From Melieria omissa (taxonomy: Eukaryota; Arthropoda; Insecta; Diptera; Ulidiidae): a DNA stretch of 64,000 bases. This document shows, one piece after another, positions 13,401-64,000 of the stretch; the first letter of the stretch is position 1; every line of letters begins with the position of its first letter. The notes below the pieces were generated by a model. That model saw nothing but the letters and a program-made list of their open reading frames with translations, was not told where the DNA came from and ran no database searches. Location of the stretch: assembly GCA_963971225.1 (NCBI GenBank), contig OZ020267.1, positions 2,480,001-2,544,000 of the forward strand, read 5' to 3'. A program made the position numbers and the translations under genes.

Positions 13401-16400
13401 ACAACAAACACTAATTAATACGCTTTTGCTTGTCTTTAATCATCACAGCATGAATCCCTCCTAATTACCCTTTCGGCCCTGCACCGGCGCATGCCACAAA
13501 ATTGGCAAATGCCAAAGGCAGACAAAAATACGGCTTAGCTACACAACGACTGGCGAAGAGGCGAGACGCCAAAACGGGCCACATTTGTTGTGGCAAATTT
13601 GCAGGAATGGCGCCGTCACATTGACTTTGTCCTAAGCAGCCAAGCAAAACATGTAAATTCCATATGTCTGCAAATGTGTGTGTGTGTGTGTGTGTGTGCT
13701 TGAGTAATTCGCCATTCAGCGAACGCTCGAACACTCGTACGCATTTTGGAAGTGTGCTTTGTTGTTTCGTGCTTATTTAGAATTTATGCTCGCGTTGAAA
13801 ATCGCTTGAATTATTCTCAAATAAAGTTAAGCAAGCGCACGCAGCTTTTTGCAGCCAAACAAAGGCAACGGCAACGGCAATTTTAATGATGCTGGCTGCA
13901 GCTGCTCCGACACAGTAGGCGCCCGGCCACTCAGCCCGCTTTGGCACTTCAAAAGCTGACGGAATTTTCCGTAATGAAGATCACAGCACGCCGGCAAAGT
14001 CAATTAGCCACAGCAGCCAGGATTTATCCATATGCCATTATTATTTACATACCGAACAGCTGTCGCAGCGCGGAGACAGGACACGCGTTAAAAGTGCAAC
14101 GAGGCAAAAACGGAATACTTAATTTTCCATAAGCCAAAGCAAGTTAAAAATAACCGGAAGCAGCGTGTCTATTTATCTATTTACTATAAATAAATGTCTG
14201 CAAATGTGATCGGCTGGCAGGACGCAGTTGCTAGAAACTTCTTTTCCTATCAATAATGTAATTTAATGTAGCATGAACTCCAGGAAATCAAGCAGGAAAT
14301 ACTTTATTCTATTTATAAATATTTGATTTTGCTACAAAGTGCTTGCTTAGATGTTTGTTTGAAATCTCAAATAGTAAAACTGGACACATAACTGTCTCTC
14401 AAGAGTCCACATTACAAGTGAACTAGTTGAATTTAGCTACAATTTTACCATATAAATTTAATGGATTTAATGACATTGGTTCATCCTTTGCTCTGTTTTT
14501 GAATCACTCCTTGTTTGATGGACCTTTTCACTTTCGTTCGTTTCTACATTCATCTCATCTTAATTCCTTCACTGCTATTTCGCTACCCTTTCCTATTTCT
14601 ATCCTTTGTTTCGTCTTTACTTTCATACTCTCGTTTAGTCTTTCAACCTCCACTGTTTCTTCTGCTTTCTTACTACTTTTGATGGTATCATCTTACATTC
14701 TCTTTGTTCCACCCATTCTTTCATCTATTTTTCCATTCATCAATCCATCCTTTGTTTCATCCTACTTTCCATCCTTCATTCTATTCTCCGTTCTCTTCTT
14801 CCTTCCATCTTTCCTTGAATCCTTCCTTCCTTTAGATCATCCTTCGATCCATTTATGCTTTTATCCTTCCTTCCATCTTTCATTCCATCCCTCCTTCCAT
14901 CCTTTCTTTTATTCATCCTTTCTTTCATCCTTCCTTTCATTCTTTCTTGAACTCTTCCTTCCTTCTTTTCGTTCAATCTTTTAGATCATCCTTTCTTCCA
15001 TACTTGCTTCAATCCTTCCTTCCATTTTTCATTGCATCTCTCTTTCCATTCTTCCTTTCATCCTATCATCTTACATTCTCTTTGTTCCACCCATTCTTCC
15101 ATCCATTTTTTCATTCATCTATCCATCCTTTCTTTCATCCTACCTTCCATCCTTCATTCTATTCTCTCTTCTATTCTTCCTTCTATCCTTCTTTGAATCC
15201 TTCCTTCCTTTAGATCATCCTTCGTTCCATTTTTGCTTCCATCCTTCCTTCCATCTTTCATTCGATCCCTCCTTCCATCCTTTCTTTTATTCATCCTTTC
15301 TTTCATCCTTCCTTTCATTCTTTCTTGAACTCTTCCTTCCTCCTTTTCGTTCATTCTTTTAGATCATCCTTTTTTTCATTCTTGCTTCCATCGTTCCTTC
15401 CATCTTTCATTGCATCTCTCTTCCCATTCTTCCTTTCATCCTATCATCTTACATTCTCTTTGTTCCACCCATTCTTCCATCCATTTTTCCATTCATCTAT
15501 CCATCCTTCCTTTCATCCTACCTTCCATCCTTCATTCTATTCTCCCTTCTATTCTTCCTTCTATCCTTCCTTGATTAATTCCTTCCATTAGATCATCCTT
15601 CGTTCCATTCTTGCTTCCATCCTTCATCCATCTTTCATTCCATCCCTCCTTCCATCCTTTCTTTCGTCCTTCCTTTCATTCTTTCTTAAACTCTTGCTTC
15701 ATTCTTTTCGTTCATTCTTTTAGATAATCCTTTCTTCCATTCTTGCTTTCATCCTTCCTTCCATTTTTCATTGCATCTCTCTTTCCATTCTTTCTTTCAT
15801 CCTTTCTTTCCTTCCTTCCTTTCGTTCATTCTTTCTTCCATCCTTCCTTGAATCCTTTCTTCCTTTCATCCATCCCACCTTCTATTCCATTCCATTCCAT
15901 TTCATTCCATTCCATTCCATTCCATTCTCCCTTCCATCCATCCTCTCATCCTTCATTACATCCCTCCTTCCCTCTTGAGTCCTTCCTTCCTTCCGTTCAG
16001 ACTTTCCTGAGTCATTCCTTCCTTTCGTTCAACCGTACTTTCTTCTTTCCCTCCATAAATCCTTTCTTCCATCCTTCCTTCCATACTTCCCTCCATAGTT
16101 GCCACCATTCTTTTGCGTTCTTTCTTTTATCCTTCTTTATTTGTAACCCTTCATCCTAACCTTTTACTTAGTTTCCTTCTTTTTTCCACTTTTCTGTGTT
16201 TCATTTATATATTCAGTTCTTTTTAATCCAACTTCTAAACTTTTCCCTTTTTTCTTTCTTCCCTCCTTCCCTATCCATCGCTCCTTCCCCTCCATCCTTG
16301 TTCATTCTTCTTTTTGTCCATCCTTCCTTTATTTCTTCCTACCTGTTTTTGTGCTTTTCCTTTCACCTTCCTTCTATCTGTACTTTTATCCTTATCACTT

Positions 16401-46400: not shown

Positions 46401-49400
46401 GAATAATAAATAAAGAATAATAAATAAATCCTTTTGAAAAACAATCAAGAAGGACCCAAGCATTCAACTGGGTACCTCATATCTGACCTTCTTAACGCTA
46501 CACAATCCTGGGTTGCCCCATAGTTCGATCTTTATTTTTAAACTAATTTGTTTAACAAGCTTCTCCTCAGACCCTCTCAGCACCTACAGTCCTTCTCCAC
46601 ACCTTCATTCAATTTTACCCCCCTCCCCACCAAAATATTCCATAATAACAAAATTCCTATTTTTCTTATTTAAATTTGCCAGCCATACTCAGACATGAGA
46701 CAGGCACAGTGACGCTGCCTGCAGCGTGTGGGTGTAAGATATTTGCTAAACATTGCGCCTACTAAATTGTGTAAGCACAGCTTTCCAAAACAACAACAAA
46801 ACAACAAAAGCCCCAAAACAAACAACAATTCGCTGACTGTGGTCGTAGGCGCACTCTGACCAAAAACAGTCAGCATCAAAAAGACCAAAAATGACAGAAG
46901 TAAAAAAATATAAAAAATTATTTGAAAAAGGAACAAATGTAGACTGCAAAAAAGCATTAATTTAGAAAAAAAAAGTTGCAACATTTGCCAAGCAGCATTA
47001 GGAATTGCGTCAACAATGGGACTTGGATGGAGAGAGAGAGCAGCAAATAAGCCAACGGAAATGTTACTGCGAACCAAATAATTTGCCTTGTGGTGAATTC
47101 ACTAACACACAGAGGTTTTTTCTGGGGTGGTTGTTGTTGTTGTTGTTGCTAGGCAGGCTTAAAGCCGCCAAATGGCAAACAGCGTCGACTGCGACTTGTG
47201 CCACCGAATTCAATTCAACTGAATGGAGCTGAGTGAAAGCAACAGCAACAACAACAACAACCGAAAAGTACAAAACAAAAAAATTTACAATGCTGCACGT
47301 CCAGCAGCCAAAACTGACAGCTGTGGCAAATAACCACAAAGACACCAAAGACTAAAAAAGCACAACAACACAACAAAAACAAACAACAACGACAACTACT
47401 CGAGGCGATAGAACAGAGACGACAACGACGCAAAACTGTGCGGACCGCCCGCTGCGGCTGGAATAGACGCAACCAACAACAAAAGCATGTTGCGCAGCGT
47501 GTTATCCGGTTGTGGTGCTGGGTGGTTCTTGTTGTTGTTGTTGTTGTTGCTAGCTTGTTTTTGAATAACCGAAAATAAACAAGCGACAAATGACAAAACA
47601 ATGCAGCCAAATGTGGCAAATAAAGGTAACCACAGCAGCAGCGACAGCGCCGTGGCGTCTCAGCAGCTGAGCGCTGCGGGACGCGACCGCGGTGGGTGCT
47701 GTGGAAAAAAATGCCAACAAAATCAGCAAATAATTTAGAAAAATGTGCAACAACAAAGCAGCTAAGCTTGCAAAAAAACAACGCACCACACAAAGTACTC
47801 TGGCAAAAACAACAACAACAACAACAAAGGCGCCCGCGTCAAGCCGGGTTAGCGCGCACTTCATTCGCACGCCCGCAGTTCCCAGCGTCTCTTTTTGTTA
47901 TTCTTCCCACCTTCCTAACCTCACTGACTCTGAATGTATGACTGTGTATGTGTGTGTGTGTGTGTGGCTTGGCGTGTTTTTTGGTATTCTTTGTGTTTGT
48001 GCCTTCTGCACTGGCCGCGTTTCCCGTGGCTCCCATTTCATGGCAAATCAACAAACGCCGCAGGAGATTAGCAAAAAAAATCGAAAATCCAAATGCAGAA
48101 AAAATTAAAACAAAACAACGAAACGCATAAAAAATGGCGGCACCCACCACCGACAACAACAGCACACAGGCAAAATCTAAGAACGCCATTTCCGCTCATC
48201 GGTGCCGAGCCGCCCGACACGTTCACAATACGTCGCCCACTCTGGACGCGTTCGCACTTTTGGTTCGTTTTCCCATTTGCCGACCGCCACATCAAAGCGA
48301 AACCCTTTGACTTGTCGTTCACTTTGCTTTTCACATTCAGTTTTTTGCGCTTTCGCTTTTTATATATTTTGATATTTTTGCGTTACACTGCGAACGCAAC
48401 AACAAATGCTGTCACAAATTTCGACGCAACAAGCATTTGGTTGACAGCCACGCCCCTGATGGATGCTGAACGCGTCAGTCGCCGAAGGCACAGCGGTCGC
48501 CTACCTTTTTCGAGTGCCTTCGTCAGACTACAAACGCACTCACATACAAACATATGTACTCGTATCTATGTATGCAGTTATGTGCCTATTTTTGTGGCCT
48601 CTTTTCCGCCCTGAATTGGCCTTTGATTACTTTATGTTGGCGCACTTTGAAGCTACTTTGGTTCTATGTATTTTTTCACTTTTCTATTTTTTTGTATCTT
48701 TCAAGTCTTTGAATTAAACATTTTCTGGTTGATAGTTGTTGTTCTTCTTTCTCTCAAAGCATTTGACATAATTGCAACTGACATATATGCAACTGTTCAT
48801 AAATGTGTATGTGTATATAATTATGTATATATGTATGTATGTGTATATATTTCAAGCACACAATTATATAAAAAAAGAGAAAAGCCAACAATTCAAAGGA
48901 AAAACAATGGAAAAAATATAAACATTTCAGTAGACCAACGATGGCCAACAGGCCGACTTTGGTTGACAAAAAAGGCCAACAATTCTGAAAAATAAGAAAC
49001 ATTTTACAAATTTTAGAAATAAAATTAAACCATAACTGACTGGACATGGAAATATTTTTACAATTTGCCTTCCTGTCTGACAATCGACTAAGGAACGTTG
49101 AGGAACCAGGATCGTCAAACTTCAATGAACAACAAACCACACCGCTACAGCAACAAATATGAAATTTGAACTGTATGCACATTTGAAAAAATAACCCCCG
49201 CCAAGACGGGATTTTTTTAAATTGGTATCCCCAATTTCAGGGGCAAATATGGATTGAGGTGTTGTATAAGGAGCTGTGTTTTAGTGGGCCTATTGTTTTC
49301 AAACTTAGTGAAAATACTTCAGATACAAAATTTTTACAAAAATTTGACGGGGTGAATCTAGGGTTACGGTTAGTATATGTAAAGGCTACGAAAAACCCTG

Positions 49401-52400
49401 ATTCGATTAGCCTATTGACTTGAAACTTGGTGAAAACACTTTAAATCTAAAATAATTTGACACGTAATCTTATTTTTTTGGAAAATCAATACTTTCAGGG
49501 GTGAACCCCTGGTCAAGGTTTAGAACTTTGTATGAAGGAACGTGATTTTTTACGCCTTTTGACTTGAAACTTGGTGAAAGTACTTCAAAGGTAAAATAAT
49601 TCGATACATGGCACAGTGATTCGTTCCATAGACAAAATTCAAAAATGTATGGTCTCAAAATGTAACTATTTTGATGTCATTTGAAAGGAAAAACTCCATC
49701 TAAGAAAACCCCAAAAAATCTCAAAGTTGAAACTTTTTTCACAAAAAAATTAAAACTCATATTTTCTGTTTTTTAGTCTACTGAGTAAAAAAAATTTGGA
49801 AAATACATGGTTACCAAGAAGTTACTTAAACTTTCAATATAGAATAATAAATGATGTGGCCATTTTCGCTTTCAATGTTTTCTCAAAATTTGCAATTTAA
49901 CATCACTTTTAATTCAAAATATTTTTCTAAATTAAAAATCTGAAAATTGGCAAAACTTAGTGGAAAATATCTAAAAAAGTATGTTAAATTACGTTCCTGC
50001 AATATAGCAATATTCGAATACTATTCGTACAAACAACTACTATTCGAATAATCGATTAATCGATTTTCAAACTATTCGACTACTTTTAAGAGCCCTAGTA
50101 ATTATATCCTCCGATATCTTCCAATCTCAGAAAATAATTCAATTTGAAAAGTGGTCTAAACACGTATTTTTCGACACAAATTTATTTTATTTATGCCTAA
50201 AAGTATGCAATCAGCACGAAAAATGGTCAAATCTGCAAAAATACAAAACATACATCTATTATTATCGTTTTTATTGCAAAACCAGAGGGTCCTCAAACAA
50301 TTTCTGTTACTCTTTGGAATAATCAATGTTGACGTTACCGATTAAATGTAAAATCTGAAAAATCAATCAACTCTGTGCTATAGCTCTCCAAAAATGACGA
50401 AATTTGCAAAATTAAGTCTCAGGCATTGCCAAACTACATATAACAGTTTAAGAGAAACGAATTGGAGATTTCAGTTCAGCAGACCACGTTTAACTAGTAT
50501 ACCAAATTTTATGAAGAACGGACCACTCCTTCTAATTTTGTCCCGCGGTTGTATGGAGTCGAATCACTGTGCATGGTTTTAATTTTTTGAAAAATCAAAT
50601 CTGACGAGTCAACGATGGGGAAAAGTTTGTATGGAGAAACATGATTTTTTAAGCCTTTTGACTTCACACTTGGTGAAAGTAAATTCGATATGTGATTTTC
50701 ACATTTTTAAATCGAACTCTGACAGCGTCAACGATGGGTTAAGAGTTTGTTTGAGAAATAATTTGACACGTGTTTCTTATTGTTTTCGAAAATAAAAATT
50801 TTACGGGGTCAATGGCGGGTTAATAATTTATATGAGGAAACATGACATCACATGAATGACTTCAAATGTGGTGAAATCACTTCAAATGAGAAATTTTTAG
50901 ATAAGTATTTTTTCATAAAAATCTGACGGGATCAACAAAGTATTAAGAAAAAAATTGATTTATTGGCCCCAATGACTTTAAACTTGCGTACAAAGCTGCT
51001 GAACCCTACTAGTAATGGATATATGGGTTGATCTCTATCCATTTCTTGCTTCATATCTACTAAAAAAAAAGCTTGGGCATCAACGTCTTCGTTTGACCAA
51101 ACAACGCCAGAACCTCCAAGACGTTCTCAGTGACTCTGCATTAATTTCGCCATTTTCTTTTCATAATACCCGCACAGTGGTAGACTTTCCTGGTGGGGAA
51201 TCTACAGTAAACATGGGTATATAGCAGAATGAATTTGACGCTTGATTTGCATATAAAGAATATAGTGAGCAGGTGGGACATAAAAAGCTTTACTAAAGCT
51301 GATTTGTTACCACCAGCAACTCAGCAAAAATATGGCAAACTTTTCTTCCAATCAATTTTTATTTAAAACTTAAAAAACAAACACACCAATTATTTCGGTC
51401 TTTTGACTTACAAGAATAGATTTTAGCTACTTCAGAAATAAATAAAAATCGCCTCATCTGCCAACACAATCCTCCATACTACAACATTTCGCCCTAAGCA
51501 CACCGACCGCTCATCCAATTTCCTCACTCAACAGCTGTGCGTTTCGGAATCAATTTCACCATCGAGCCATCAATAAAAAACTTTGCCCAGCACAAAGTGT
51601 ACCTACGGTCCCAGTGGTCCTGCTTAGCTGCTCACCTGCTGCTCCTTCACACCTCGTCCTCGCTGCCGTCCAACGCCAATCAGCGCACATTTATTCTCAT
51701 TTGATTTTATTGCAGTGGCAAGCAACGTGCCGCATGCAACCAGCCAGCCAGCCACCGCAAGTGCAGGTAGCCAAAAGTGTTAATAGAAGTTGAAATCGAA
51801 AATACGTTTTAACTTTGCCTTTCTTGTCGCAATCGCGCTCGCCGCTGTCCCGTTGCGCGGCCGGCGAACGCTGCGCTCGACCCCAAACACGCAGCGAAAG
51901 TTTTAAGCTGCAGTTCATGTAAAAGTTTGCGCTCTCGTGCAACACGACCGGCATCCGCACGCGGGAATACAGCACAATACAAATACATGCATAAATGTGT
52001 GAATGTGTGTGTGTGTGTGTGTGTGTGTGTGAGTTACATTAGTTTAAATTGCAGACAAACATGGAGCGATATAAATTAAATCGCTGTGGGAGCCAAAAAT
52101 TCAACTCCAACTGCACTTTACACCTTCGGGCTGCTGTGCGGCAGCTGGCAGCGCCAACGCCAACGTTAACGCCAACTCTGCCGTCCGTCCATGCGTCCTG
52201 CGTGCACAGTTGCAATTTATTTGCAGATTTTGCGAATTGCCCGAATTGGTGCTGCGTATTTTTAGTGTTCAGTTGGTTGTTGTTTGCGTTTGTTGCGCAC
52301 TTTGGTGCCACTGTGCAGTCGTATGAATGTTTGAGTGTTTGTTGTGCGGCGACATTACACTGTCAACATTTTTGTTGTATGGAAAACTTTGCTGTTCGCT

Positions 52401-63169: not shown

Positions 63170-64000
63170 GCAGGGCCCCGTGGCTTTGCATGCAAATTTT
63201 AAGTCAATGGGCCCAACAAATCAAATTTCTCTTAGATCTTTATAAAAAAAATACTTGCCGAATTATTTCTGATTGAATTGCTTTCGCCAAATTAAAAGCC
63301 AATAAAACCGATAAAATCATATTTCTCCATACACAATCTTCACCCATTCTTTATCGCGTTAAAATTTTGAATTTCGAAAAGAATTAAAACCCCTTGTCGG
63401 TTTATTTATCACTTGAAGCACTTTCGCCAAGGTTGAAGTGAAAAAGCCCATAAAATCCGGTTTCCAGAATTATTTCACATTTGAAGCACTTTCACCACTT
63501 TGAAGTCAAAAAACTCTTTAAATCTTGATTCCCTTATACAAAGTTTTAACACATCGTTGACCCGTCAGATTTTGATTTTCGAAAAAATGTAAACAAGTGT
63601 CGAATTATATCACATTCGAAGTACTTTCACCAAGTTTCAAGTCAAAAGGCACATCAAATCTGGTTTCTCTATGCTAACTTTTAACCCATTGTTGACTCGG
63701 TCAAATTTTGATTTTTGAAAAAATGAAAAACACGTAGAATTATTTCACATTTGAGGTACTTTCACCTGGTTTCAAGTTAAAAGACGCAAAAAGTCATGTT
63801 TCTTTATACAAACCTTTAACCCATTGTTGACCCCACCCCGCATTGTTGAATCATTTCACATTTGAAATGCTTTCACCAAGGCCAAAAAAATCATGTTTCC
63901 GCATAAACTTTTAACCCTTGGTTCACCTCGTTACATTTCGATTTTCAAAAAAAATGAAAAACACATGTCTAATTATTTTTAAAATCAAGTGTTTTCACCA
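63170..64000 (-). repeat. Same degenerate satellite in reverse orientation, running off the window
   Basis: Units contain ACTTTCACCAAGTTTCAAG, TCAAAAGGC and AACCCATTGTTGACCC, the complements of the words at 49200-50950. Marker positions near 63281, 63421, 63489, 63628, 63760, 63871 and 63992 give spacings of mostly 110-140 bp. The array continues past the window edge. Confidence 0.85.

What the first reader, a model, noticed from the sequence alone, without database searches (positions are those of the whole stretch)
49612..50571. Transposon whose ends look like V(D)J recombination signals (13/23 spacing)
The sequence shows an exact 5-bp target duplication (CATGG), perfect terminal CACAGTG heptamers, and ACAAAATT(C/A) at 13 bp from the left heptamer and 23 bp from the right. 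Shifting the left nonamer by one base (GACAAAATT) gives a 12-bp spacer. Established: RAG recognises CACAGTG-12/23-ACAAAAACC, and Transib, the proposed RAG1 ancestor, makes 5-bp duplications and has RSS-like ends. Inference: this is a non-autonomous Transib-type element with asymmetric 12/23-like ends in a fly. The host satellite provides a clean empty-site comparison, which makes the boundaries unusually secure.
Basis: partly seen in the sequence, partly recalled or inferred. Interest (0 to 1): 0.87.

Follow-up and report, generated by a model that had tools for sequence, protein, structure and literature searches.

The report
RAG-signal-like ends on a fly transposon
An insect (probably fly) genome carries many copies of a small jumping element without a gene of its own, whose two ends resemble, in sequence and in their unequal spacing, the signals at which vertebrates cut their antibody genes; it is likely moved by a relative of the antibody-gene cutter RAG1, and it adds a new case to a rare kind that was already known.

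Summary
A 960-bp element (49612-50571) has perfect 12-bp inverted repeats starting CACAGTG, an exact 5-bp duplication (CATGG) and an identical block GACAAAATT 12 bp from the left and 22 bp from the right heptamer (13/23 if read as ACAAAATT[C/A]; one register never gives exactly 12/23). Host repeats give a clean empty site. I fetched 38 further copies from the same 490-Mb genome. Of 39 rows, 29 have both ends; 26 of these 29 have exact 5-bp duplications (consensus CANTG). The block is in register in 29 of 30 left and 35 of 37 right ends. The element encodes no transposase. The genome does hold Transib transposases (52 of 68 RAG1-family matches over cut-off; one matches HzTransib at E 2.4e-98). 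The three autonomous families whose two ends I read have heptamer ends and 5-bp duplications, but with their shared block at equal distances on both ends. None of 28 transposase loci examined (of 68) carries this element's ends, so the enzyme that moves it is not identified. Unequal 12/23-like Transib ends are in print (Transib5 of Drosophila; Transib2, N1, N2, N3 of Anopheles). Verdict: a new family of a known kind, with symmetric and asymmetric elements side by side in one genome.

The parts
49612..50571 (.). the non-autonomous transposon, 960 bp
   Evidence: boundaries also from copies and empty site
49607..49611 (.). left target-site duplication CATGG
50572..50576 (.). right target-site duplication CATGG
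49612..49623 (+). left terminal inverted repeat CACAGTGATTCG (heptamer 49612-49618)
50560..50571 (-). right terminal inverted repeat CACAGTGATTCG (heptamer 50565-50571)
49631..49639 (+). left nonamer-like block GACAAAATT, spacer 12 (ACAAAATTC at 49632-49640, spacer 13)
   Evidence: in register in 29 of 30 left ends
50534..50542 (-). right nonamer-like block GACAAAATT, spacer 22 (ACAAAATTA at 50533-50541, spacer 23)
   Evidence: in register in 35 of 37 right ends
50000..50097 (.). stretch of the window copy without a match in the other scored copies (replaced or inserted DNA)
49522..49606 (.). left flank, host tandem-type repeat (stretch used for the empty site)
50577..50666 (.). right flank, host tandem-type repeat (stretch used for the empty site)

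Best explanation
This is one copy of a repeated cut-and-paste DNA transposon that encodes no transposase and has RSS-like ends of unequal length (heptamer CACAGTG, block GACAAAATT at 12 and 22 bp), likely moved in trans by a Transib transposase, the family from which RAG1 is thought to descend. Shown: boundaries, 5-bp duplications, empty site, copies across the genome with the same ends, no transposase frame, and Transib transposases in the same genome. Inferred: that a Transib enzyme binds heptamer and block, cuts at CAC with hairpins on the flanks, and inserts with a 5-bp stagger at CANTG-like targets. Untested: that the enzyme prefers to pair one short-spacer with one long-spacer end.
For: Exact 5-bp duplications in 26 of 29 copies with both ends (25 of 29; L053 corrected), consensus C-A-N-T-G. 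Heptamer CACAGTG in 28 of 30 left and 34 of 37 right ends; block in register in 29 of 30 and 35 of 37. 77 matched stretches in the own genome, only 40 of 2630 first-look candidates scored. Empty site. Transib transposases in the genome: 68 RAG1-family matches, 52 over the cut-off, 0 of 14 control genomes; one frame matches HzTransib (PDB 6pqn) at E 2.4e-98. Five autonomous loci read on both sides have heptamer ends CACAGTG or CACTATG and exact 5-bp duplications, two of these five duplications (CGTTG, GAATG) also being used by the 960-bp family.
Against: No autonomous element with these ends was found: 0 of 28 transposase loci examined have CACAGTGATTCG within one mismatch in the stretches read. 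The three autonomous families with both ends read are symmetric, so they do not explain the asymmetry. Their duplications are mostly C(G)NCG-like, those of this family CANTG. The nonamer match is imperfect (7 and 6 of 9), and by nonamer score alone the left end also has A-rich stretches at spacers 20-22 (scores 6, 5, 5).
Confidence: 0.8

Rival explanations
1. It is a non-autonomous Transib, but the unequal spacing has no functional meaning: the left end lost about 10 bp of spacer by chance, or the enzyme reads mainly the heptamer side and a loose A-rich tract near 20-23 bp on both ends.
For: The left end has A-rich stretches at spacers 20-22. TCCATA precedes the gap in both ends, so the right end looks like the left with 9-10 extra bases. 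Most Transib families have symmetric ends (PMC8289069, passage), and invertebrate RAG-like transposons are proposed to be rather insensitive to asymmetry (PMC7204232, passage). Nonamer scoring is unreliable here: for the symmetric family D it would pick spacers 24/22 and 10.
Against: The nine-base block is identical at both ends and conserved in place in nearly all copies fetched, and its geometry is rare by chance (0.03%). All copies descend from one element, so conservation does not by itself show function.
Confidence: 0.55
2. The element belongs to another cut-and-paste superfamily, moved by a non-Transib transposase whose ends happen to start CACAGTG.
For: No transposase with these ends was found, and none of the 28 Transib loci examined matches.
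Against: 5-bp duplications and CAC-type heptamers are features of Transib and RAG (PMC4411706, PMC7204232, passages) and were measured for the genome's own Transibs. hAT would give 8-bp duplications (recalled).
Confidence: 0.12
3. The resemblance is chance in AT-rich DNA.
For: The element is 70% A+T, so A-rich blocks are common; the nonamer match is 7 and 6 of 9.
Against: Ends, duplications and blocks recur in the copies; perfect heptamers inside 12-bp inverted repeats.
Confidence: 0.03

Closest known systems
Transibs with 12/23-type unequal ends: Transib5 (Drosophila melanogaster), Transib2, N1, N2, N3 (Anopheles gambiae)
   Same: As described in PMC8355894 (Fig. 2 legend and passages): heptamer and nonamer-like blocks with 12 or 23 +-1 bp spacers on opposite ends, in Diptera, some non-autonomous by name (N; recalled).
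Autonomous Transib families A, B and D of the same genome
   Same: Heptamer CACAGTG or CACTATG, exact 5-bp duplications in 5 of 5 loci read on both sides.
   Different: Shared block at equal distances on both ends; other sequence beyond the heptamer; they encode or flank a RAG1-like transposase.
Hztransib of Helicoverpa zea
   Same: 5-bp duplication and inverted repeats (PMC1852546, passages); its solved transposase matches a transposase of this genome at E 2.4e-98.
   Different: 3518 bp and autonomous; symmetric ends with little nonamer similarity (PMC8289069, passage).
Vertebrate RSS pairs (RAG1/RAG2)
   Same: Heptamer CACAGTG identical; nonamer 7 of 9 and 6 of 9; spacers within 1 bp of 12 and 23.
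   Different: Ends of a mobile element, not of gene segments; spacer difference 10 bp instead of 11.

Membership tests
Transib superfamily | 5-bp target-site duplication | tested here: met
   window copy and 26 of 29 copies with both ends exact, 28 of 29 within one mismatch
Transib superfamily | ends beginning CAC with an RSS-like heptamer | tested here: met
   CACAGTG in 28 of 30 left and 34 of 37 right ends
Transib superfamily | moved by a RAG1-like Transib transposase (own, or of an autonomous partner with the same ends) | tested here: inconclusive
   no frame over 104 aa in the element; Transib transposases in the genome but 0 of 28 loci examined have these ends; pattern search of all ends unanswered
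12/23-type unequal Transib ends | nonamer-like blocks at 12 +-1 and 23 +-1 bp | tested here: met
   12/22 or 13/23, conserved in register in 29 of 30 and 35 of 37 ends
12/23-type unequal Transib ends | the enzyme prefers unequal pairs | not testable with these tools
   needs an assay
RAG-like (RAGL) transposons | RAG1-like and RAG2-like genes between the ends | tested here: not met
   no frame over 104 aa; 5 of 24 listed frames scanned, no Pfam match
hAT superfamily | 8-bp target-site duplication (recalled) | tested here: not met
   duplications are 5 bp

The most novel reading that the evidence does not exclude
One insect genome hosts symmetric Transibs beside an amplified family with 12/22-23 ends whose unknown Transib enzyme enforces unequal pairing of ends without RAG2: a natural 12/23 rule outside vertebrates, with matched controls in the same nucleus.
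Probability: 0.15. Interest if true: 0.75.

Novelty: new member of a known kind. Interest (0 to 1): 0.42.

Why it matters
Whether the 12/23 rule was inherited from a transposon or arose with RAG2 is an open question. A repeated family with conserved unequal ends, in a genome that also carries open transposase frames of families with symmetric ends, offers natural substrates to test whether a Transib enzyme tells 12/22 from 12/12 and 22/22 pairs. The kind itself is already described, so the gain is a new, well-bounded example and a side-by-side comparison, not a new principle.

Tried and rejected
Exact 12/23 reading: rejected, since one register gives 12/22 or 13/23. Transposase hidden in the element: no frame over 104 aa, no Pfam match for 5 of 24 listed frames, consensus against 121 Transib proteins best E 0.065. 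Transib coding in the window or in the flanks of the fetched copies: no hit at 1e-4 with the same 121 proteins (flanks of the copies about 300 bp each side or a little more). Partner at L053: a second, diverged right-type end lies beside this copy, but no Transib coding was found in the 13.9 kb read there. A CACAATG-22-ACAAAATTA look-alike in L077 was followed up: the real end of that locus is a family B end further out, so the look-alike is inside the element and dropped. Other collections: no match of the end pattern in viral contigs; 12 bacterial contigs match the short pattern and were not followed. Papers: the 2005 Transib/RAG1 paper is not held, so its families are cited through PMC8355894 (passages). 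Print searches bearing on this family: 11 papers; 11; 4; 50, of which 25 listed; 1, not about Transib; 0. They do not show that the family is unpublished; Repbase was not available.

Full report
The observation. The window holds, at 49612-50571, a 960-bp element with perfect 12-bp terminal inverted repeats CACAGTGATTCG, flanked by CATGG on both sides. The ends read CACAGTG-ATTCGTTCCATA-GACAAAATT (left) and CACAGTG-ATTCGACTCCATACAACCGCGG-GACAAAATT (right, reversed): the same nine bases at spacers 12 and 22, or ACAAAATTC / ACAAAATTA at 13 and 23. In 200,000 pairs of ends drawn from a dinucleotide model a shared 9-mer arose in 0.9%, and in this geometry in 0.03%; both tests were framed after the fact. 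The flanks joined over one CATGG align without a break to host repeat units about 13 kb away (81% identity over 176 columns for the best), so the boundaries are secure.

Copies. The window lies in a 490-Mb genome held as G000. The element matched 77 stretches there, with only 40 of 2630 first-look candidates scored, so the number is a lower bound. Of the 39 other places that the scored candidates stand for, I fetched 38 (the one at C2:63870800 was left out by oversight). Of 39 rows including the window, 29 had both ends by my criterion; 8 lacked a recognisable left and 2 a recognisable right end. Identical 5-bp duplications were found in 25 of 29. One of the four failures, L053, was an error of the script, which took a second end lying beside the copy; its true left end gives CAGTA/CAGTA. 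That makes 26 of 29 exact and 28 of 29 within one mismatch; L047 differs at two places. The target consensus from the 25 is C (22), A (21), any, T (19), G (22). The heptamer is CACAGTG in 28 of 30 left and 34 of 37 right ends, and GACAAAATT is in register in 29 of 30 and 35 of 37 (left ends without L053). The 27 copies used for a consensus differ from it by 2.5-5.4%, the window copy by 6.7%. The ends vary less than the middle (0.8-2.1% against up to 8.4% per 40-bp bin), but I chose copies by their ends, so this is not evidence of selection.

Coding. No frame in the element exceeds 104 aa; five of 24 listed frames were scanned and have no Pfam match; the consensus shows no significant similarity to 121 Transib proteins (best E 0.065). 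It is non-autonomous.

Transibs in the same genome. The RAG1 family (PF12940) matches 68 places, 52 of them over the curated cut-off, in frames up to 689 aa; 0 of 14 control genomes ring. One frame (L068; 638 aa of 689 read) matches the solved HzTransib transposase at E 2.4e-98 and RAG1 chains at E 3.3e-7 or weaker. Named relatives include proteins of the gall fly Eurosta solidaginis (58% identity over 64% of the query). With exons that I recognise from memory as fly-like, this suggests a fly; the species is not known to me.

I looked at the 3' side of 28 of the 68 loci. Of 15 loci, 11 show a family A end; in 4 none was found at the mismatch limit. Of 13 loci, 12 show an end, and the thirteenth (L077) shows a family B end further out. 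I read the 5' side of seven loci with the ends sought; six show an end (L089-L092, L094, L096) and L098 none; an eighth 5' stretch, L100, gave no clear end. Three families have both ends. A: CACAGTGGCTGATTCTGCCGGCGTAGGTTGCAAAAGTC and CACAGTGGCTCAATTTGTCATTTCAGGTTGCAAAATTA, duplications CGGCG and CGTTG. B: CACTATGGCCCAACGGTCGGTAAAACGTTGCAAAAATC and CACTATGGCCCGGTTTGCCATTTTTCGTTGCAAAAATC, duplication CGTCG at two loci. D: CACAGTGAGATAAAATCTCGAAAAACTGGCCACAAAC and CACAGTGGGATAAAATCTCAAAAAACTGGCCAAAACT, duplication GAATG. The five loci read on both sides have exact 5-bp duplications. CGTTG and GAATG also occur as duplications of the 960-bp family. In A, B and D the longest block shared by both ends sits at equal distances (spacers 17/17, 18/18, 13/13), whereas in the 960-bp family it sits at 12 and 22. 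Scoring against ACAAAAACC alone is less clear: it would place family D at 24 or 22 and 10, and gives the left end of the 960-bp family further A-rich candidates at spacers 20-22. None of the 28 loci has CACAGTGATTCG within one mismatch in the stretches read.

How it likely works. By inference from Transib and RAG biochemistry (HzTransib makes hairpins on the flank and blunt cuts on the element side; PMC6941560, passage), a Transib transposase made elsewhere would bind heptamer and GACAAAATT on both ends, pair them, cut at CAC and insert with a 5-bp stagger. Which enzyme does this here is unknown, and whether the 10-bp difference matters is untested. RAG-like transposons of invertebrates are proposed to be rather insensitive to asymmetry (PMC7204232, passage), so the layout could be historical.

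Place in what is known. Unequal, 12/23-like ends are described for Transib5 of D. melanogaster and Transib2, N1, N2 and N3 of A. gambiae (PMC8355894, Fig. 2 legend and passages). A 2022 study reports asymmetric ends throughout Transib subgroup I and both kinds in subgroup II (PMC9435367, passages). The finding is therefore a new family of a known kind. What is added is a secure, repeated example and, in the same genome, symmetric autonomous Transibs for direct comparison. The transposase that moves it remains to be found.

Noticed in passing
window 50000-50097: About 98 bp with ATTCGAATA / AATCGATT motifs in the window copy match none of the other scored copies; the family consensus has a different, shorter stretch there. 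It may be a piece of another mobile element ending in AGAGCCCTA (hAT-like by recollection).
   Followed up: partly
L053, 1192-1288 (genome C2 about 95835295-95835391): A second, diverged right-type end (spacer 22, GACAAAATTA) with other sequence further in: a related family into which this copy jumped. A genome search with it did not complete.
   Followed up: partly
L061-L075, L089-L097: Transib transposase loci with frames up to 689 aa, ends and exact 5-bp duplications; families A and B in many near-identical places suggest recent activity (inference).
   Followed up: partly
L086, 3' end: A fourth type of Transib-like 3' end (CACAGTGGCATTTTTATACAATCTAGTCGCTCGAAATTA) beside a short RAG1-like match; its 5' end was not read.
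   Followed up: no
window 49262-50939 and 63183-64000: Diverged units of a host tandem-type repeat (period about 135 bp at 63466-63833) in two places on opposite strands; the element sits in the first.
   Followed up: partly
window 14686-15994: Tandem array with a 378-bp unit made of TCCTTCCATCC-like repeats, about 3 copies.
   Followed up: no
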